Shown here one piece after another: positions 3,659-13,447 of a DNA stretch of 41,321 nucleotides. The notes beneath the pieces were generated by a model, which saw only the letters and a list, made by a program, of their open reading frames with translations, was not told the origin of the DNA and searched no databases. Numbering within the stretch: position 1 is the stretch's first letter; each line of letters starts with the position of its first letter. Source of the stretch: Actinomycetes bacterium (GTDB lineage: Bacteria; Actinomycetota; Acidimicrobiia; Acidimicrobiales; Acidimicrobiaceae); contig JAJYHR010000186.1 in assembly GCA_021784675.1 (NCBI GenBank), positions 1-41,321 of the forward strand, read 5' to 3'. Position numbers and translations under genes: made by a program.

Positions 3659-5038
3659 ATGGCGTCCATCAGGCAGGATGCTCGGGACTTTGGAGATCGG
3701 CTGAACGCCATGATCTTCGAGCAAGAGAAGATCTTTCTTGCCCGACAGCCAAACTCTGCCCGCAATCAAGGCAGGGCGGAAAGGAGCCTCGCCGGGGGTA
3801 CCACTTCAAGCTGGCAAATTCACCGACCCCAGGCGATCTGGATCAGCCATGGAGTTGGATCCAAGGTCTACGACGTGGACGGGAACGAGTATGTCGACAT
3901 GCACGGGGGCTACGGAGCGATGCTGGTCGGTCATGCTCATCCCCTTGTTGCAGGCGCGATTGCCGAGCGCGCCTTTCGGGGCACTCACTTCGCGCAACCG
4001 ACCGAAGACGCTGTCACCGTCGCGGAAAATCTCGCTTCGCGGTTTGGCCTGCCCCAATGGCGCTTTGAGAACTCAGGAACCGAAGCTACCATGGACGCGA
4101 TCCATCTGATGCGAGCCTATACAGGCCGGGATCTCATCATCAAGGTCGAAGGATCCTATCATGGTCACCACGATTCCGTCCAGGTCTCCGTCTACCAGGA
4201 ACCACCCGATATCGGACCCGCCGATGCGCCGGCTAGCGTCGCGGCGTCATCCGGCATCCCGCAGGCGATCGTTGCGCTCACAAAAATCGTACCCTTCAAC
4301 GATCTAGCCGCGCTTGAACGGCTGCTCGAAGCCAATTCAGACTCCATCGCCGGAATGATCATCGAACCAGTGATGATGAACCTGGGGATCATCCCTCCCG
4401 ACCAAGGCTATCTCGAGGGCGTCCGAACCCTGACCCGGGAACACGGCGTCCTGCTGGCCTTCGACGAGGTCAAGACTGGTCTAACGACCGGCTACGGCGG
4501 CATCACCAAGCTCTACGGCATTGAGCCCGACATCGTATGTCTTGCCAAATCGCTTGGAGGGGGTGTCCCCTGCGGAGCAATCGGCGGGACTCATGAGCTT
4601 ATGGACTTTATCGCCAGTGGCGGTTACGAGCAGGTCGGGACCTTCAACGGCAACCCACTCACCATGGCTGCAGCCCGGGCCGTGCTAACTCAAGTCCTCG
4701 ATGAAACCGCCTATAACCGTATCGAGCAGTTGAGAAAGCTGCTTGCAACTGGAGCGGAGGCCATCATCAGGGAATTCGAGCTGCCAGCATATGTACGCAC
4801 GATCGGAGCCAAGGGAGCAATCATCTTCTCGCCTACCCCACTTCGGAACTACCGGGATTTCCTGGCAGTTGACAACCGGTTCAGCCATGCGCACTGGCTA
4901 TTCCAGCACAACGGCGGAGTCTTCTTGCCTCCGTGGGGAAAGGCAGAGCAGTGGACCGTGTCGGTCCAGCACACCGTCGAGGACGCCGAACGCTTCCTTG
5001 CAAACTTCCGGGAGTTTGCCACGGCCCTCGTTGCCTAG
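3659..5038 (+). CDS. Class III PLP-dependent aminotransferase (glutamate-1-semialdehyde aminomutase-like)
   Basis: ENSGTEATMDAIHLMRAYTGRDLIIKVEGSYHGHHD, LLAFDEVKTG and CLAKSLGGGVPCGAIGG. AAGGAGA RBS supports ATG at 3659 rather than TTG at 3641. Confidence 0.9.
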   Translation: MASIRQDARDFGDRLNAMIFEQEKIFLARQPNSARNQGRAERSLAGGTTSSWQIHRPQAIWISHGVGSKVYDVDGNEYVDMHGGYGAMLVGHAHPLVAGAIAERAFRGTHFAQPTEDAVTVAENLASRFGLPQWRFENSGTEATMDAIHLMRAYTGRDLIIKVEGSYHGHHDSVQVSVYQEPPDIGPADAPASVAASSGIPQAIVALTKIVPFNDLAALERLLEANSDSIAGMIIEPVMMNLGIIPPDQGYLEGVRTLTREHGVLLAFDEVKTGLTTGYGGITKLYGIEPDIVCLAKSLGGGVPCGAIGGTHELMDFIASGGYEQVGTFNGNPLTMAAARAVLTQVLDETAYNRIEQLRKLLATGAEAIIREFELPAYVRTIGAKGAIIFSPTPLRNYRDFLAVDNRFSHAHWLFQHNGGVFLPPWGKAEQWTVSVQHTVEDAERFLANFREFATALVA

Positions 5039-5299
5039 GCGGCAAACCAAGGGCGGTTGCCCAATTCTCGCACAGTACGGAAATCACGTGGCGGTACTGC
5101 CAAGCCGTAGGAGCAATCAGTCGGAAGGGGTGCCACACCATGACCGGAACAGCTAGGCCCAAGTTTCGCTTCATATTCCCACCGATCTTCCCGCTGAACA
5201 GCGTCAGTGGCTTTATCGGAGCAGTTTGGTGTAGCCAAGGGAGCGGTTTTGCGGCCGCGACTGGTCAGCGAGAATAGCGCTTCGACCGGGCAATCGTGT

Positions 5300-5460
5300 G
5301 CCGTGCATATCGCGCGCGTTCTACGCAAGGATCGAACGAAGGGCGGCGACAGCCGCGAGTCGGTCCCCCGCCTTCGGCGCCGGAGCTATCGCGAGGGCAA
5401 GAAGATCCGCCGCGAGACCCTCGGGAACGTCTCGGCACCTCCCGTCGCCGCGCTCCTACT
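5300..5460 (+). pseudogene. IS1634-like transposase N-terminal remnant
   Basis: AVHIARVLRKDRTKGG...RRRSYREGKKIRRETLGNVSAPP resembles the IS1634-family N-terminus (HIARV..., SYREGGKV...ETL.N.S.LP); truncated. Confidence 0.5.
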
Positions 5461-5757
5461 CCCTGCCCAGCGCGCGCCCAAGCAGCATTCATCTGGCCCG
5501 ATTTCCGCTGGTCACCGAAACTGCGCCAGGAGTCCGTCCTCGAGCCGCCGGAGCAGGATCCCCGTGCCCGACCGCAGTGGCGGCCATGCACGAAGATCAG
5601 GATTGCTGTGTGCCACGCCATCACGTGCTGGGAATAATTCGGTATGCCTTGCGCATGAGACGGAATCAGTATAGTTTTGGGAGTTGCAAACAGGATTCCG
5701 TAACACACCTCCGGCACTGTTCTTTGAGGGCTTACCGGGAAGCCAAAGGAGGTCTTC

Positions 5758-7122
5758 GTGGTGCACGACCACCGGAAAGGTGCTGCCAGCTTCTGGCTTG
5801 CAGAGCTCGGGGAACCGGTCCTGCGGAGGCCTCTTGCCAGCGATCTACGGGTCGATGTCGCCATAGTTGGCGCTGGCCTTTCCGGTCTCTGGACGGCCCG
5901 CTACCTACTCGAGCGCTCCCCTGAACTGAAGATTGCTGTGCTGGAGCGCGAGTATGCCGGCTTCGGCGCCTCGGGAAGAAACGGCGGATGGGTCTCAGCG
6001 CTGTTCCCGGTGCCCGTCCCCCGGGTCAAGAGCGAATACGGTGCGACCCTTGCAGACTCGCTTGAGCGTGCCCTCGCCAAGACGGTGGACGAGGTGGGGC
6101 GGCAAGTTCACGATCTGGCGATTGAGTGCGATTTCATCAAGGAAGGCACTCTCGTCGTAGCGCGGAATAGGCCCCAGTGGTCGAGGTTGCTGGAGGGGGC
6201 GATGGGCTCTACGGGTTCGACCATCCTCGATGCGTCCGGGACCGCGCGGATCCTGCGGGTACCCGACGCGCTTGGAGCGGTGTACGAACCGAGCTGCGCC
6301 ACGGTGCAGCCAGCCAAGCTGGTCAGGGGACTGGCCGACCGGGTGGAGGAACTCGGGTGCAGGATTTTCGAGAGTACCGAGGTGAGCGCTGTCGACGGAT
6401 CCCGGTTGGTCGCGAATGGGCACACGGTGCTGGCCGACCATGTCGTAGTCGCCGTGGAGTCCTACGGCTCCGAACTCGCGGGCCGCCACCGGTCCGTGCT
6501 TCCCCTGTACTCGATGATGATCGCGACCGCACCGCTAAGCGATGCGCAGTACGAAGCCATCGGGGAACCGCCAACCGGGCTGAGCTTCGCCGACGGCCGC
6601 AACCTGGTGGTCTACGGTCAGGTCACCGCTGGTCGACGGATAGCTTTCGGCGGACGCGGGGCCCCGTACAACTTCGGCTCGCGGATCTCTGATCGGATGG
6701 ATCAGCGCGAAGCGATGCGGCGCAAGCTCGCCAGCGACCTGATAAGCCTTCTGCCTGGCCTCCACGAAGTCAAGGTCGAAGCGTTCTGGGGAGGCACCAT
6801 CGGGATCTCCAGAGACTGGTTCCCGCGGCTGCTGCTTGGCGCCGGGAACCGGCAGGTCGAGGTGCGTGGGTACGCAGGCGACGGGGTAGCCATGACCAAT
6901 CTCATGGGGCGGCTAATCGCGGGCGTGGTAACCGATCCCGATAACCTTCCGGAGTATCTGCCGATCTTGACCCGGCCCGAACGGGAGTGGGAGCCAGAGC
7001 CGCTCCGATATCTGGGTATTAACCTTGGGCTCTTGCTCACCCGCGCGGTGGATCGGTTGGAGCAAGCCGGTAAGCCAGCCTGGCCTCTCGACCGGATGAA
7101 GAGGGTACTTATTGGCAGATAG
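5758..7122 (+). CDS. FAD-dependent oxidoreductase, DadA/glycine-D-amino acid oxidase-like
   Basis: Rossmann motif VAIVGAGLSGLWTARYLLERSPELKIAVLERE, GFGASGRNGGW, FGGRGAPY, YAGDGVAMTNLMGRLIAG; AAAGGAGG RBS. Confidence 0.92.
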   Translation: MVHDHRKGAASFWLAELGEPVLRRPLASDLRVDVAIVGAGLSGLWTARYLLERSPELKIAVLEREYAGFGASGRNGGWVSALFPVPVPRVKSEYGATLADSLERALAKTVDEVGRQVHDLAIECDFIKEGTLVVARNRPQWSRLLEGAMGSTGSTILDASGTARILRVPDALGAVYEPSCATVQPAKLVRGLADRVEELGCRIFESTEVSAVDGSRLVANGHTVLADHVVVAVESYGSELAGRHRSVLPLYSMMIATAPLSDAQYEAIGEPPTGLSFADGRNLVVYGQVTAGRRIAFGGRGAPYNFGSRISDRMDQREAMRRKLASDLISLLPGLHEVKVEAFWGGTIGISRDWFPRLLLGAGNRQVEVRGYAGDGVAMTNLMGRLIAGVVTDPDNLPEYLPILTRPEREWEPEPLRYLGINLGLLLTRAVDRLEQAGKPAWPLDRMKRVLIGR

Positions 7123-7172
7123 GCCGTCGCCGCCTGCTTCACCGAGTTGCTCTTGATCTGCCTGCCACTCGA

Positions 7173-7903
7173 GGAATAGTCAAGACCTGTGGATCGGCAT
7201 GTTACGCAACCTGCTGTCCACCTCCTGACTCGTCGGGACGTTCGATGAGCTTGCCGTTGTCGAAGTTCACGCCGGGCGCCGACGAGAGCGACGAGATGAG
7301 GCGCGTTGAGCGCCCGCCACCGTGCCTGTGCGGACTCGATGAGCTTGGAGGTCATCGCTACGCCGGCTGCCCGTGAGCCGGGTCATTGGTGACCCGTTGC
7401 CGGAGTCGCCCGGTCGCAAAGGTCGATTCGATCGGGCTCATGGTCCTCAAGTGCACCCAGTGTTCATCGGAGTTGTTGAAGAACTCGAGGAGCACGTCAA
7501 GGTCTTCAGTGATCTTGGCGGCGGCCTTGGGCCACTTCGGCCCGTACTCAGTCGTAAAGGCCCGGGCGGCAGCCTCGGCGTGCTCGCGGTCTTCTGAGTT
7601 CCAGATCACGGCCCAGAACCCAAGTGCCCCATCACCGATGGCGAACACGGGCGCGGCCACGCCGCGCCGCTTGCAGGTGCGCAGGAGATCGCCCCAGGAC
7701 TCGGCGTGCTCCCGGTGTCCGTCGTCGAGGGCGATCAACTCCTTGGAGCCGTCGGCACGCGCCATCATCAGGGATCCAGCTCGGCAGATCGACGTACAAG
7801 CCCGGGTAGTCAATCCCGGCCTGCGGCGAGCGCTCCGCCACGCCGACAACCTAAAGCACTCTGATGGAGAGCCCTGGGCCGGAAATCTCGCGCCATGCGC
7901 CAT
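7173..7903 (-). pseudogene. IS256-family transposase remnant with frameshifts and a probable internal deletion, including a candidate terminal repeat
   Basis: ELIALDDGHREHAESWGDLLRTCKRRGVAAPVFAIGDGALGFW joins directly to IWNSEDREHAEAAARAF...EHWVHLRTMSPIESTFATGRLRQRV. The C-terminus SKLIESAQARWRALNAPHLVALV is in another frame. Minus-strand GATCCACAGGTCTTGACTATTCC at ~7174-7196 resembles an IS256-type end. Confidence 0.8.
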
Positions 7904-7957: not shown

Positions 7958-9547
7958 CTACCTGGCCTGCTCCTCCTCGTAGTAGCGGCGCCAAATCGCC
8001 TTGTACACCGGGATCTTCTCCGGGATGCGGCGAAGACCCGGGATATAGGGGAAGATCACAAAGGCGAGCGTGAGAACGGCCATGATCGACATCACCATTA
8101 CGTCCCCGTTGGCCGATGTTGACATTGGCGGGATCTGGTACCAGAAGGTATACAGCCACAACCACGCTTGTCCCGGGAAGTTGCCGGTCTCGTTGGTCAT
8201 TCCCCACTGCGTCCCGAGCAGGTGGTACTTCTGGCCGATGGAGCTGAAGTAGCCACCGTCGGCAAGGAACAGGAGCGGCTTGGTGTAGTCGGTGCCGTAG
8301 AAGCCCTGATGGGACTCGAGCGCGTTGTCCAGCCCACCCGAACGGGCCATCACCAGCAGGTTATCGAGAAGGGTCGGTACCGGGCCATAGTTGCCGCGCG
8401 GGTACGAAAGCCGGTCCCCGGTCACGGTGAGGTGCTGGTCCGCCTTCCCGAAGGCCGCCGTCCAAGCAGCCTGCTGCGCCACCGAAGCGTGCTGGTAGGT
8501 GTAGAGCGCGCCTGCAAGCGACGGGATTCCCGACTTGATCGTTTCGAGTGGTCCAAGGACGAAATCCTGCCCCGAGTTGATCGGATAGTGAACACCCGCA
8601 AGCTTCTGGAGTGATACCGGACCAAGGCTCTGCACGAAACCTGACTGATTGTTGTACGGTGGACCGTAGGTGGCACTCTCGGACGCTCCGGCCAGCTCGG
8701 ACTGGGCGGTCTGCACGAAGTCCACCGGATCGACCTGCGACCACTGCTTAATGGTGGCCGCAGGATCGTCTGGGGAGCTGAAGACAACCGAGAACAGCAG
8801 TGTAAGGATCGCCACGATCACAAAGGCGATCGAAGCCTCCTTGACGATGTCGTAGGGACGGACGCGGCCCCTCCAGGGCTTTTTCTCCTCCGAACGCGGC
8901 ACCGAGCCTATCGGCGGGACAACGCCCCGGTACCGCACCATTAGGACGTGTATGGCAACGAAGATGATCACCAGCAAGGGCAGCAGGAGAATGTGCCACA
9001 TGAACATCTGCCCGAAATTGAGGACGTTGAAGTATGCCCCGATCCCGGTCGAGTTCATCCCGTCCTTGGCCTGGGTGGATATCCACTGCGAGTCCAGGTT
9101 CTGCTGCGAAAGGTAGCCGGTAAATGCGGCCCCGATCGAGAGCAGGAAGGCAAGCACCCCCGTTACCCAGGTAAGCCCTCGCTTCCCGCGCCATGCTGCC
9201 ATGAAGAATTTCCCCCAGAGGTGGATCACCATGAAGAAGAAAAAGAGCTCGACGCTCCAAAGATGTGTCGAGTTGACGAAGTGGCCCTCGGGAGAGTTGT
9301 GCCACCAGTCCGGCCCCTCCAGGGCGAGCACCGCCCCCGAGATCGCGACCACGATCAGGGCCGCGAGCGTCAGCACTCCGAAGACGTAGATCCAGCTGGC
9401 TACGTAGGCTGGCTGGGTGTCCGGGAGCAGCTTCTCGGGGGGAAGCTTTCCGGTCAGGGTGCGACGCAGCCTCGAGGTCCACTCCCGGGACAGCTCCGCC
9501 TGATCGAGCTCAGCAGCCTGGTCAGGGGCCTGCGGTTCAGTTCTCAT
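7958..9547 (-). CDS. Cytochrome b6/petD-like fused protein with a large insertion in the predicted ef loop (paralogue 1)
   Basis: Four heme-ligand His in HLWSVELFFFFMVIH and HILLLPLLVIIFVAIH; HLWGKFFMAAWRGKRGLTWVTGV; C-terminal petD-like helices (PYDIVKEASIAFVIVAILTLLFSVVFSSPDDP; AWLWLYTFWYQIPP). Start placed at MRTEPQ (9547). Confidence 0.88.
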   Translation of the reverse strand: MRTEPQAPDQAAELDQAELSREWTSRLRRTLTGKLPPEKLLPDTQPAYVASWIYVFGVLTLAALIVVAISGAVLALEGPDWWHNSPEGHFVNSTHLWSVELFFFFMVIHLWGKFFMAAWRGKRGLTWVTGVLAFLLSIGAAFTGYLSQQNLDSQWISTQAKDGMNSTGIGAYFNVLNFGQMFMWHILLLPLLVIIFVAIHVLMVRYRGVVPPIGSVPRSEEKKPWRGRVRPYDIVKEASIAFVIVAILTLLFSVVFSSPDDPAATIKQWSQVDPVDFVQTAQSELAGASESATYGPPYNNQSGFVQSLGPVSLQKLAGVHYPINSGQDFVLGPLETIKSGIPSLAGALYTYQHASVAQQAAWTAAFGKADQHLTVTGDRLSYPRGNYGPVPTLLDNLLVMARSGGLDNALESHQGFYGTDYTKPLLFLADGGYFSSIGQKYHLLGTQWGMTNETGNFPGQAWLWLYTFWYQIPPMSTSANGDVMVMSIMAVLTLAFVIFPYIPGLRRIPEKIPVYKAIWRRYYEEEQAR

Positions 9548-9734
9548 TCGTCCTCCCGGAGCGATGCTGCGGGAATGGGATCGCCATAGCAAGCACGAAA
9601 ACCAATAACATCAGGATGATTACCACCAAGTTCGCGTAGGAGATCTGGATCACGCCCCACTCGAAGTAATGAGCCGTCCCCTTCAGGTTCACTATCGCTC
9701 CGAGCAGGAGCCCGAGAACTTCCAGCATGTACAT
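9537..9734 (-). CDS. Small single-TM protein, homologous to the N-terminal extension of cytochrome b paralogue 2
   Basis: AIVNLKGTAHYFEWGVIQISYANLVVIILMLLVFVLAMAIPF aligns with AIVNLNHPDHYISWGFILISVANLIVIAILIALFIIAIALPF of the 12556 ORF. AAGGAGG RBS. Overlaps the downstream cytochrome b start by 11 nt. Confidence 0.8.
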   Translation of the reverse strand: MYMLEVLGLLLGAIVNLKGTAHYFEWGVIQISYANLVVIILMLLVFVLAMAIPFPQHRSGRTNEN

Positions 9735-9813
9735 ATACCTCCTTGCGGATACCTATTAGGTACGTTCTCGCTCAATCACAAGTGCTCAAAGTCCCGACCA
9801 TCGAACTACTTGC

Positions 9814-10055
9814 TGTGGACGACGCTCGAAAACTGGACGATTACAACGCTCGAAAAGTGAACAGCGCCATGGAGTCTAACTCGTGTCCTCCGTGGTCATC
9901 ATGACGCTCGGCAGACTATTGACACCCCGTCCGCGCAGTCGATAGCTTGCGCCCTTCAAAGTGAGGACGTCGGCGTGATGGACAATCCGGTCGATCATCG
10001 CGGCCGCGACAACTTGGTCCCCGAACACCCCTCCCCATCCATCTGGAACTGGCAC
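9814..10055 (-). pseudogene. IS21-family IstB C-terminal remnant plus IS terminal repeats
   Basis: Minus-strand translation WGGVFGDQVVAAAMIDRIVHHADVLTLKGASYRLRGRG matches the IstB C-terminus. It is followed by two copies of acgctcgaaaa[cg]tg[ga]ac at 9822-9838 and 9846-9862, typical of IS21 ends. Confidence 0.75.
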
Positions 10056-10223
10056 AGGTTCTCTTGGGTGAATGTTGCCTGCTGACTGGGGATTCCTTGG
10101 TCAATAGCGATTCGACCTAATTCAAGGTACGACCTGCTATTGTTAGGTGTCACCTGTGAGTTTATGGCAGAACGAAGGTGTGCAGGTGGGGCGGGTAGCG
10201 GCGCAGTCGTGCGAGCTCCGCGC

Positions 10224-10496
10224 TCAGTCGTCCGCGCTGGTGAGCTTCGCCCAAGCGACGGACCCATTCGCTTGCAGGAGCGAACAGGCCACGGTAGCCC
10301 TGTTGGGTCCGCATCGTTTCGCGAGCCTCGAGTACTGGGCCAAATAGTACGTCCCCTTGGTCCGTGACGCGGCTTTGGCGGCCTCGACGAGGGCGTCACC
10401 GATCCGGGCCCCGAGGTCCCCGAACCAACAAAGGGTCCACGCCGATACCGCCGCCTGCAAGGCCATGATCCTCGCCGAGCACGAAACCCTCCACAA
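10224..10496 (-). pseudogene. IS110-family transposase C-terminal remnant
   Basis: ALVEAAKAASRTKGTYYLAQYSRLAKRCGPNRATVACSLL resembles the IS110 C-terminal region (EAA.AA.RTKGTYL.AQY.RLA.RRG..RA.VAVAHSIL); truncated. Confidence 0.6.
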
Positions 10497-10569
10497 GGCC
10501 GAGAAGGGAGCGCTGCCGCGCCGCGAAGGGCTCTGATCACCGAGTGGCGCCGCCAGGCCCTAAAAGTAA

Positions 10570-10610
10570 AGGTTGGTGTTCGTGAATCCACGACTCACGA
10601 ACACCAACCT
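10570..10610 (-). terminator. Rho-independent terminator of the cytochrome b paralogue 2 operon
   Basis: Perfect 16-bp stem AGGTTGGTGTTCGTGA / TCACGAACACCAACCT with a 9-nt loop, followed on the minus strand by TTTACTTTTA; 21 nt after the stop at 10632. Confidence 0.82.
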
Positions 10611-10631
10611 GGCGATCAGCCAGCCACCGGC

Positions 10632-11630
10632 TCAAGCCGACTCGGTGACCTCCTGATCCCGATAGTAGCGCTTCCAGATCAGCCGGTGCAGCGGAAGCTT
10701 CTCCGGTATCCTTCTGACTCCTGGAATCACCGGGACAAACAGCAGAGCGATGCTCAGCACCGCCATGATAGCAGCTACCTCCACATCGCCGTTCGCGGAG
10801 ACTGACATCGGCGGCACCTGGTACAGCATGGTGTAAAGCCACAGCCACGGCTGTCCCGGCCAGCTGCCGGTCTCGTTCATGACTCCCCACTGGCCACCGG
10901 AAAGATGCTGGGAACCAACGATCTTCCCCCAGTAGCTTGCGGTACCCTGAGCCTTCCACGAGTCGCCGATCATCATCAGAGGCCGGGTGTAATTCGTGGT
11001 ATAGAAGCTGGAGCTGGTGAGGAGCTGGGCGTCAAGACCGCCGGACTGCGCCATTGACAGCAGCTTGGTCATGAGCTCGGGAACCGGACCAGCGCCCGGC
11101 ACGGCAGCTGGCACGTTCGAGCTCGACAGCGGCTCCTTGCTCAACTTGGCTTGGTACACGCTTGCCCAATGGTCCTGCACCGACGTCGGCGCCTGCTCGA
11201 ACTCTGCGATAGCAGCCGAGAGCGCTGGATCGCCAGGCAGCGTGGACAGTGGCTTCAGAACAAAGTCCTGCGCCGTGTTGAGCGAGTACTTCACGCCGAG
11301 GATTTTCTGGATCGACACCGGCCCAAGCGTTTGAATTCCGTCGGTAGCCGGGTTGTCAGAGTTGTTGTACGGCGGTCCATAGGTGGCCGAGTTACTGGTG
11401 CGGTTCAGCTCGCTTATCGCTATGTCCACGAATCCGGCTGGCTGAGCCTTGGCCCAGGCCTGAACGGTGACGGGGGGCATATCAGGCGACGAGAAGGTTA
11501 TCGCAAGAACGAACGTGAGCACCAGCACGACCAAGAATGCGATCGTCGCCTCCTTCAGGATGTCGTAGTGCCGCTGCGGCCCAACCCATGGCGAGGCGTA
11601 CAGCTTCTCGGAATCAGACCAACGACTCAC
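10632..11630 (-). CDS. petD-like C-terminal half of cytochrome b paralogue 2, with large extracytoplasmic insertion
   Basis: HYDILKEATIAFLVVLVLTFVLAITFSSPDMPP...SNSATYGPPYNNS...LGPVSIQKILGVKYSLNTAQDFVL...GSWPGQPWLWLYTMLYQVPPMSVSANGDV is colinear with the C-terminal part of the 7958-9547 product. ATG overlaps the upstream stop by 4 nt. Confidence 0.85.
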   Translation of the reverse strand: MSRWSDSEKLYASPWVGPQRHYDILKEATIAFLVVLVLTFVLAITFSSPDMPPVTVQAWAKAQPAGFVDIAISELNRTSNSATYGPPYNNSDNPATDGIQTLGPVSIQKILGVKYSLNTAQDFVLKPLSTLPGDPALSAAIAEFEQAPTSVQDHWASVYQAKLSKEPLSSSNVPAAVPGAGPVPELMTKLLSMAQSGGLDAQLLTSSSFYTTNYTRPLMMIGDSWKAQGTASYWGKIVGSQHLSGGQWGVMNETGSWPGQPWLWLYTMLYQVPPMSVSANGDVEVAAIMAVLSIALLFVPVIPGVRRIPEKLPLHRLIWKRYYRDQEVTESA

Positions 11631-12556
11631 TTGACCACCTCCTCCTCTCCTTCAGCCGCGCCAACCTTGCGATTGGCAAGAATCGAATGCCTGCCCACGG
11701 CGCCGTCTTCGGCTGTGGCCGCTTGCAGCGCCACCGCGAGGTACTCCGGCTTCACATCGATCGGCGGCACCACTCCTCGAACCCGGACCATCAGAACGTG
11801 AATGCCGACGATAACCAGGAGAATGACCGGGACAAAGACGATATGAAGCATCAGCGCCTGCCCGAAGTCCATAGCGTTCATGAAATAACCGATACCGGCT
11901 GAGTTGAACGCGTCCTTGGCTTCAAACGCAATCCACTGCGAGTCGAAGTTGGTCTGGGACAGGTATCCGGTGAAGGCTTCGAAGATCGAGACCAGGAAGG
12001 CCAGCACACCGGTTACCCAGGTGAGCCCGCGCTTTCCCCGCCAGGCAGCCATCCAGAACTTGGCCCAAAGGTGAACCGTCATGAAGCCCATGAACAGTTC
12101 AACCGACCAGAGGTGCAGGGAGTTGACGAACACCCCGTACGTGCTCGAATGCCACCATGCAGGCCCTTCGATGGCCAGGACCAAACCGCTCAGGACAGCC
12201 ACGGCCAGGGCGCCTATAGTTAGCACCCCGAAGACATACACCCAGGACGAGACGTAAGAGGGCTGTCCGTCCGGCAAGAGCTTGCCCGGTGGAAGAAACC
12301 TGAGCCCCCACTCCCTGACGGAGGCCGTCCAGCCATCCGGCCGCTCACCCGGCGTTTCCGGCGCCACCTGCTTCACCGAGTTGCTCTTGATCGGCCTACC
12401 AGCTACGAACGGCAGGGCGATCGCGATAATGAAAAGTGCGATCAATATCGCTATCACTATCAGGTTCGCAACGGATATCAGAATGAAACCCCACGAAATG
12501 TAGTGGTCCGGATGATTCAGATTGACAATTGCGGCTACTGTCGTAGGCACGCTCAT
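11627..12556 (-). CDS. Cytochrome b6-like N-terminal domain protein with an N-terminal TM extension (paralogue 2)
   Basis: HLWSVELFMGFMTVH and HIVFVPVILLVIVGIH heme ligands; HLWAKFWMAAWRGKRGLTWVTGV; N-terminal TM segment; AAGGAG RBS. Confidence 0.88.
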   Translation of the reverse strand: MSVPTTVAAIVNLNHPDHYISWGFILISVANLIVIAILIALFIIAIALPFVAGRPIKSNSVKQVAPETPGERPDGWTASVREWGLRFLPPGKLLPDGQPSYVSSWVYVFGVLTIGALAVAVLSGLVLAIEGPAWWHSSTYGVFVNSLHLWSVELFMGFMTVHLWAKFWMAAWRGKRGLTWVTGVLAFLVSIFEAFTGYLSQTNFDSQWIAFEAKDAFNSAGIGYFMNAMDFGQALMLHIVFVPVILLVIVGIHVLMVRVRGVVPPIDVKPEYLAVALQAATAEDGAVGRHSILANRKVGAAEGEEEVVK

Positions 12557-13373
12557 TCTCCTTCCAAACAGAGTCTGATCGACTCTCGGCTCAACCCCCA
12601 GACGGGTTCATCAGATCGGCCTATCGTTAAACCCTTCCCATAGGAGCCTAGGCAAACCGGGGGAACCTTTCTAGGGCCAAAACTCCGCCGAGCGTTTCCC
12701 AATGGTCGCATTTTCCATGGGTAGCACTTCTCTCCTTCGGCAAGCGCCCCGGCTGCCAGAAGAGCCGGCAGGGTCACCCCGGCGCGCGGCTGCCCTAGAA
12801 CCCTTACGGCTTGAGCGATTGCCCGAGGATCGTCCCTCCGGATACCGGGGGCCAGGGCAAGGCCATGTCGCGTCCGGGCTCTCCAGGCAGGCCCGGCACC
12901 CTTTCCCCCAGAATACTGCGGGTCACTTCGGAGATTCCACCCCCGGTCGTGCTCGCACGAGAGCGGAGAAGCAGCTCCACGAGGGTCTTGCCAAATCCCC
13001 CACCACGCACACCCCGCCGGCTCCGGCCGGCGCATCGTGCAGTCCGGATGGAACAGCGGCTCGCCCCGATCGGCAGGCGCAGGCAGTGCTGCGCTATGAC
13101 GCCGTTGTGGACCCGGGCGCCGTTGCGACCGATCCCGCCGGCCGCGTGACCAGGGACCGTGCAGCCGGCCAAACAGTTCGGGCCGCCTCGCTCTGCCAGG
13201 GGCTTCCTCAAAGATCAGAAGTTCAGCCTCGATCACCGTGCAACACATCCCTCGTCTCCACCAAATGTCAAGCGGCCCACTTTCAATCACATAATCGCAT
13301 CATTTGTCGATCGCAAGTGCACAAAGTCCTTACGGTATTGTGCCCGGTCACGGTCCCGGTTCTGATCTGGTTA

Positions 13374-13447
13374 GCGGTTGACCGCCCGCAACGGTGCGCG
13401 CACAGCCCGCGCGGTTGACCGCCCGCAACGGTGCGCGAACAGCCCGC
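13374..13447. repeat. Tandem direct repeat, 2 x 37 bp with one mismatch
   Basis: gcggttgaccgcccgcaacggtgcgcg[c/a]acagcccgc at 13374-13410 and 13411-13447. Confidence 0.9.

What the first reader, a model, noticed from the sequence alone, without database searches (positions are those of the whole stretch)
7958..12556. Two cytochrome b6/petD-like paralogues share a ~190-200 aa extracytoplasmic insertion in the predicted ef loop
Seen: in both loci the petD-like helix E (…FSSPDDPAAT / …FSSPDMPPVT) is followed not by the Qo-loop segment but by ~190 aa (approx. 8180-8755) or ~200 aa (approx. 10868-11468). Only then come the helix F-like segments (PGQAWLWLYTFWYQIPP / PGQPWLWLYTMLYQVPP). The insert is conserved between paralogues (SATYGPPYNN, LGPVSxQKxxGVxYxxNxxQDFVLxPL, SGGLDAxL, YTxPLxxxxD, QWGxxNETGxxPGQ) and has no CXXCH. 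Established: in cyt b6f subunit IV the EF loop is short and contributes to the Qo site. Inference: a Qo-side soluble domain replacing or adding to the usual Rieske/cyt f partner surface.
Basis: partly seen in the sequence, partly recalled or inferred. Interest (0 to 1): 0.78.

Follow-up and report, generated by a model that had tools for sequence, protein, structure and literature searches.

The report
Rieske-less cytochrome b with ectodomain
Two neighbouring genes encode an undescribed kind of respiratory cytochrome b in which a roughly 200-residue domain of no known fold sits on the outer face where the usual partner protein would dock; the family is widespread in actinobacteria and often has binding sites for the low-oxygen (dormancy) regulator in front of it.

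Summary
Both loci encode a diheme cytochrome b6-like half, followed by a helix-E segment, then about 200 residues, then the segment that replaces PEWY and helix F. The insert is conserved between paralogues (44% identity) and across 74 aligned family members. It has no cysteines and matches no Pfam or NCBIfam family, no PDB sequence, and no PDB fold (AlphaFold2 pTM 0.78, best Foldseek E 3.7). A one-helix ORF of about 65 aa precedes the fused gene and is fused to the split one. Helix G is absent and the Qo motifs PEWY and PW are gone, while all four haem ligands and the b6-type n-side Arg remain. No bc-type Rieske partner gene lies near 88 family loci, although the host keeps a separate canonical bcc-aa3 locus. 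The family is in 40 of 43 genomes of the host's family, in other Actinomycetota and in Chloroflexota. DevR/DosR-type boxes precede 31 of 78 members (4.3 expected), and DevR orthologues lie nearby in several lineages. In the window, a DevR-like element occurs exactly twice in the genome, upstream of these operons. Most likely it is a hypoxia-induced transmembrane quinone oxidoreductase working without Rieske; the p-side redox partner is unknown.

The parts
9779..9794 (-). DevR-box-like promoter element GGACTTTGAGCACTTG (context CGGGACTTTGAGCACTTGTGAT)
   Evidence: Exact pattern GGACTTTGNNCACTTG occurs only twice in the 1.95-Mb genome, here and at 13314-13329; conserved in same-genus relative L030.
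9537..9734 (-). small one-TM subunit, 65 aa (MYMLEVLGLLLGAIVNLKGTAHYFEWGVIQISYANLVVIILMLLVFVLAMAIPFPQHRSGRTNEN)
   Evidence: Homologous ORF found upstream in 60 of 109 copies by a motif scan; fused to the cytochrome in P0003 and L123; no Pfam match.
7958..9592 (-). fused cytochrome b6-like + ectodomain protein (544-aa ORF; likely real start ATG at 9547, overlapping the small ORF)
   Evidence: PF13631 E 6.6e-17; His ligands H110-x13-H124 and H200-x14-H215.
8168..8779 (-). inserted extracytoplasmic domain of the fused protein (SSPD...PGQ, 204 aa)
   Evidence: Alignment A3; AF2 pLDDT 80.9, pTM 0.78; no PDB fold.
11627..12556 (-). split paralogue, N half: small TM segment fused to cytochrome b6-like domain (309 aa)
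   Evidence: PF13631 E 6.2e-10; 62% identical to P0001 over 210 aa.
10632..11630 (-). split paralogue, C half: helix E + ectodomain + helix F (332 aa); start overlaps the stop of the N half
   Evidence: 47% identity to P0001 C half; no Pfam or NCBIfam match at threshold.
10851..11492 (-). inserted extracytoplasmic domain of the split paralogue (214 aa)
   Evidence: 44% identical to the first insert.
12674..12687 (-). weak DevR-box-like match GGAGTTTTGGCCCT, about 120-130 nt upstream of the split operon
   Evidence: 2 mismatches to GGGACYTTNGGYCC; at the usual distance for the family but weak alone.
13314..13329 (-). second exact copy of GGACTTTGNNCACTTG, about 760 nt upstream of the split operon
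   Evidence: distance unusually long, function uncertain.

Best explanation
These are two paralogous copies of an undescribed respiratory membrane complex made of a one-helix small subunit, a diheme cytochrome b6-like unit (helices A-D), and a helix E - ectodomain - helix F unit, fused to the b6 unit or separate. The n-side half of the cytochrome (haem bH, b6-type Arg) is kept, so it most likely exchanges electrons with the menaquinone pool there and passes them through bH and bL across the membrane. On the p-side the Rieske-dependent Qo chemistry is lost: PEWY becomes PGQxWLWLY and the PW motif of the cd loop becomes SQQNxDSQW. A capping domain with no known fold relative covers a pocket rich in invariant polar and Trp residues, where an as yet unknown acceptor or donor reacts directly with bL. 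The complex is expressed under low oxygen or NO through a DevR/DosR-type regulator in many lineages. Shown by sequence: architecture, ligands, missing motifs, small subunit, distribution, regulatory-site enrichment. Inferred: n-side quinone site, direction of electron flow, p-side substrate, hypoxic induction in this organism.
For: All four bis-His ligands in 107 of 109 N halves, with the Arg matching b6 R207. Cytochrome b relatives with solved structure match across helices A-E, and the whole AF2 model's best Foldseek hits are bc1 cytochrome b (E 2.7e-6). Invariant p-side residues: Q163, D167, Q169, N467, E468, G474, W477, L478, W479, L480, Y481. No bc-type Rieske or partner multihaem cytochrome c gene near 88 loci, while the host has a separate canonical QcrA/QcrB/QcrC plus aa3 locus. 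Small subunit conserved upstream and fused in some members. DevR-type box (<=2 mismatches to GGGACYTTNGGYCC) in 31 of 78 upstream regions against 4.3 expected from 593 other upstream regions in the same loci; <=1 mismatch 12 against 1.3. Identical cores are listed as OsdR sites in Streptomyces coelicolor (PMC5069765). DevR orthologues (51-63% identity over about 210 aa) within about 4 kb in L036-L050 members, L064, L074, L088 and L094; the L094 copy's best PDB match is M. tuberculosis DevR 3c3w, E 1e-66. Own genome has a USP-DevR pair on C71.
Against: No biochemical data, and no identified p-side partner, so direction and substrate are guesses. The full-length AF2 model is only moderate (pLDDT 69, pTM 0.58) and the p-side loops are below 50. 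The published Streptomyces sites, used as a weight matrix, give a weaker, though significant, enrichment than the consensus (p 3e-5). A control FNR palindrome is also mildly enriched (25 vs 13.6 at <=2 mismatches). In the host genome itself the canonical DevR box is not enriched, and the two window elements are divergent. Many members neighbour ctaA/ctaB/ctaG, which could mean an oxidase-assembly role.
Confidence: 0.5

Rival explanations
1. It is an ordinary Rieske/cytochrome b complex whose Rieske and cytochrome c subunits are encoded elsewhere; the insert is an extra docking domain.
For: N half is homologous to b6 units of Rieske complexes of other actinobacteria; the host has several Rieske proteins elsewhere.
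Against: PEWY and the cd-loop PW motif are missing; related canonical operons keep PEWY and Rieske side by side; no linked bc-type Rieske in 88 loci. Of the host's Rieske hits one is the canonical QcrA; the C89 and C90 loci looked at do not look like bc-complex loci.
Confidence: 0.13
2. It is an assembly or haem-handling factor for the haem-copper oxidase (haem A synthesis, copper insertion) rather than a respiratory enzyme.
For: In 21 loci, mostly of one Acidimicrobiia lineage, it lies next to ctaA and ctaB, and ctaG is near in 15.
Against: That linkage was not seen in the window, the Acidithrix group, Thermoleophilia, Amycolatopsis or Chloroflexota loci; all four haem ligands are retained, as expected for an electron-transfer chain.
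Confidence: 0.13
3. It is a hypoxic electron outlet from menaquinol to extracellular metal, such as Fe(III) reduction by acidophilic members.
For: Ferrithrix and Acidithrix carry it and reduce Fe(III) when oxygen is low (PMC8790237); weak profile similarity to ExtP of metalloid-reduction operons.
Against: Also in Amycolatopsis, Conexibacter, Phycicoccus and Ktedonobacteria; no multihaem cytochrome partner; the ExtP score is far below its cut-off.
Confidence: 0.12
4. It is a redox or oxygen sensor or a degenerate, non-catalytic paralogue.
For: Qo motifs lost; located near two-component genes in several lineages.
Against: Strong conservation of ligands and p-side residues over Actinomycetota and Chloroflexota, 40 of 43 genomes of the host family; no output domain.
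Confidence: 0.1

Closest known systems
Cytochrome b6 + subunit IV of Rieske/cytochrome b complexes (PF13631, PF00033; split operons of deep actinobacteria such as L163/L164)
   Same: Helices A-D with H-x13-H and H-x14-H ligands, Arg five residues after the last His, helix E start, split or fused arrangement.
   Different: No Rieske or cytochrome c partner gene, no PEWY, no cd-loop PW, no helix G, about 200-aa ectodomain between E and F, extra one-helix subunit, no Cys for haem c_n.
Actinobacterial QcrB (bcc-aa3 supercomplex)
   Same: Same superfamily; Foldseek and HMMER hits.
   Different: A canonical QcrB with its Rieske and a two-haem cytochrome c is present separately in the same genome (contig C178); this family is an addition to it.
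ExtP (selenite/tellurite reduction operon cytochrome b, NF040969)
   Same: Best NCBIfam hit of the b6 half (52 bits).
   Different: Cut-off is 290 bits; no Ext operon partners seen; the 205-position ExtP model covers only the b6 half.
DevR/DosR (OsdR) dormancy regulon
   Same: Box of the GGGACCTTYGGCCC type upstream; DevR, USP, PNPOx and nitroreductase genes as neighbours in several lineages.
   Different: The word cytochrome does not occur in the S. coelicolor OsdR regulon paper; no report of a b-type cytochrome complex of this kind in the regulon was found in the searches made.

Membership tests
Cytochrome b/b6 superfamily | four-helix core with two bis-His haems | tested here: met
   PF13631 E 6.6e-17 and 6.2e-10; ligand pattern in 107 of 109 N halves.
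Rieske/cytochrome b (bc1, b6f) complex | PEWY Qo motif | tested here: not met
   Replaced by PGQxWLWLY in the family; canonical relatives keep it.
Rieske/cytochrome b (bc1, b6f) complex | Rieske subunit in operon | tested here: not met
   None near 88 loci except a dioxygenase-like ORF about 5 kb from one.
Rieske/cytochrome b (bc1, b6f) complex | subunit IV with helices E, F, G | tested here: not met
   Helix E supported, one helix after the insert, sequence ends before a G helix.
Cytochrome b6f | Cys attaching haem c_n | tested here: not met
   No cysteine in P0001 or P0003.
Described ectodomain family | match to Pfam, NCBIfam, PDB sequence or PDB fold | tested here: not met
ExtP | score over NF040969 cut-off | tested here: not met
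   52 bits against 290.
DevR/DosR regulon (family-wide) | DevR-type box upstream | tested here: met
   31 of 78 against 4.3 expected, in several lineages; a statistical property of the family, not of every member.
DevR/DosR regulon (window genes) | DevR-type box upstream | tested here: inconclusive
   Divergent element, two copies only in the genome; 2 mismatches to the consensus.
DevR/DosR regulon | induction by hypoxia or NO | not testable with these tools
   Needs expression data.
Quinone oxidoreductase | quinone turnover | not testable with these tools
   Only n-side residue conservation seen (R220; D248 and E252).

The most novel reading that the evidence does not exclude
A DevR-controlled, hypoxia-specific energy-transducing complex in which cytochrome b works without Rieske protein: menaquinone reacts at the n-side, and a previously unknown chemistry takes place at a p-side pocket capped by a domain of new fold.
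Probability: 0.3. Interest if true: 0.85.

Novelty: new variant of a known kind. Interest (0 to 1): 0.62.

Why it matters
Cytochrome b is treated as inseparable from its Rieske partner in energy-conserving bc chains. A conserved, widespread branch that has kept both b-haems but replaced the whole quinol-oxidation side would show another way to use this scaffold. The DevR-type sites tie it to the low-oxygen/dormancy programme of actinobacteria, where how the quinone pool is kept balanced without oxygen is still open. It gives a short list of genes to delete and assay in culturable carriers (Amycolatopsis, Conexibacter, Acidithrix).

Tried and rejected
Frameshift in the fused gene: rejected. The upstream reading frame is a complete small ORF conserved in relatives. 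Plasmid-borne copies: none. Distant PDB or viral fold for the insert: none. Profile alignment of the C half with canonical PetD beyond helix E: not significant. Actinobacterial N-half hits at E about 1e-21 turned out to be ordinary b6-type units with a PEWY partner, with Rieske genes in the two loci read in full. FNR-type box as control: enriched far less than the DevR box. Literature search for the family by organism, DevR and PEWY terms: no description found.
Full report
Observation. The window encodes, on the minus strand, a 544-aa ORF (7958-9592) and a pair of 332 and 309 aa (10632-11630, 11627-12556). The N-terminal parts match the cytochrome b N-terminal/b6 family (PF13631, E 6.6e-17 and 6.2e-10) and align with each other at 62%. 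The C-terminal parts align at 47% including the insert and match no Pfam or NCBIfam family at threshold. The four haem ligands are in place (H110-x13-H124, H200-x14-H215 in P0001). The insert spans about 8168-8779 and 10851-11492.

Anatomy. Alignment of 28 fused relatives shows invariant residues throughout the insert and at the p-side. The helix-E segment aligns with canonical subunit-IV-like proteins (hhalign E 0.0011), and the rest of the C half does not. After the insert comes PGQxWLWLYTxWYQ in place of PEWYFxxxxQIL, then a single helix and a basic tail, so helix G is missing. In the cd loop GYxLPWxQxxxW becomes GYLSQQNFDSQWI. There is no cysteine for a haem c_n. By the standard cytochrome b topology the insert is extracytoplasmic (inference). 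An AlphaFold2 model of the full protein is moderate (pLDDT 69) and its Foldseek hits are bc1 cytochrome b. The insert alone, with 74 sequences, folds with pLDDT 80.9 and pTM 0.78 as a mostly helical domain that matches nothing in the PDB (best E 3.7) or among viral models. No library of predicted cellular structures was available, so 'no known fold' means none among solved structures.

A missed subunit. Upstream of the fused gene, in another frame, lies a 65-aa one-helix ORF (9537-9734) with the motif NL...HYxxWxxIxISxANLxVIxxM. A motif scan finds the same ORF upstream of 60 of 109 family copies, and it is the N-terminal segment of the 309-aa protein and of L123. It is therefore a conserved small subunit, not a frameshift. 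It matches no Pfam family at threshold.

Distribution. 40 of 43 genomes of the host's family carry the insert-bearing form, 32 of 296 sampled in the class, and named carriers include Ferrithrix thermotolerans, Acidithrix ferrooxidans, Amycolatopsis, Conexibacter, Phycicoccus, Ktedonobacteria and a Dormibacterota MAG. Fused and split forms interchange: a tree needs about five changes, at least three forced by well-supported branches. The split paralogue of the window is on a long branch. A distant branch (L114/L115) keeps a shortened, recognisable insert. The host also has a canonical Rieske-QcrB-cytochrome c locus with an aa3 oxidase on contig C178, so this family is an addition.

Context. No bc-type Rieske or partner multihaem cytochrome c lies near any of 88 loci; one dioxygenase-like Rieske ORF sits about 5 kb from one locus, and one two-CXXCH ORF lies near L072. 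Neighbours differ by lineage but include DevR orthologues, DevS-like GAF histidine kinases, universal stress proteins, PNPOx-like flavoproteins, an Acg-type nitroreductase, phosphoketolase and, in one lineage, ctaA/ctaB/ctaG (several of these names are by eye). Four patterns were tested upstream: the canonical DosR palindrome, the looser DevR form GGGACYTTNGGYCC, a window-derived element and FNR as control. With 593 other upstream regions from the same loci as control, the DevR form within 2 mismatches is in 31 of 78 against 4.3 expected, and within 1 mismatch in 12 against 1.3; FNR 25 against 13.6. A matrix from the published OsdR sites (PMC5069765) gives a weaker but significant shift (p 3e-5). 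Upstream regions were thinned for near-duplicates, but related lineages are still counted more than once, so the exact ratio should not be over-read. The <=1-mismatch sites come from several separate lineages. In the window the element is divergent: GGACTTTGNNCACTTG occurs only twice in the 1.95-Mb genome, at 9779 and 13314, upstream of the two operons, and is conserved in the same-genus relative L030. This pattern was derived by comparing the two promoters, so its uniqueness, not its discovery, is the evidence, and a shared element could simply be inherited from the duplication. The copy at 13314 is about 760 nt from its gene, and a weaker box at 12674 is at the usual distance.

Mechanism. 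Kept n-side features (haem bH, R220 matching b6 R207) with a rewritten p-side argue for a transmembrane electron path between menaquinone on the n-side and something reacting directly at bL on the p-side, under a capping domain. Which way electrons flow, and the p-side substrate, are not known. The DevR link makes low oxygen or NO the likely condition of use. Rivals are a Rieske complex with unlinked subunits, an oxidase assembly factor, an Fe(III)-reducing outlet, and a sensor. None is excluded biochemically.

Novelty. No description was found in the literature searches, and the ectodomain has no match in the libraries used. Because the core is plainly cytochrome b, I rate it a new variant of a known kind.

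Noticed in passing
window 7124-7167 and 12358-12401: A 44-nt repeat (91% identical), only these two copies in the genome by a 61-bp query; the second copy lies in the linker where the small TM segment is fused to the cytochrome in the 309-aa protein (peptide IKSNSVKQ), suggesting that the fusion arose by insertion or recombination.
   Followed up: partly
window 9995-10591 and 7358-7903: Remnants of transposases around the fused gene: an IS110-like C-terminal remnant (by eye) at about 10160-10460 and a Mutator-family fragment (PF00872) at 7358-7903.
   Followed up: partly
L114 8518-10195 + and L115 (reverse strand): Distant subfamily with shortened insert, split genes and two short TM ORFs (about 63 and 33 aa) downstream, next to glutamate-synthase-like genes.
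   Followed up: partly
L084, L076, L071, L066: Solirubrobacterales-type copies have an FAD-dependent Pyr_redox_2 (sulfide:quinone-reductase-like) gene upstream, a possible partner.
   Followed up: no
window 13374-13447: Two 37-nt tandem copies (97%) of GCGGTTGACCGCCCGCAACGGTGCGCG... between the cytochrome operon and the GGDEF/EAL gene.
   Followed up: no
L158 (contig C71 of the host genome) 4095-6024: USP-DevR-PhoU gene order; PhoU, DevR and USP also flank the cytochrome in the Acidithrix group, a shared synteny block.
   Followed up: partly
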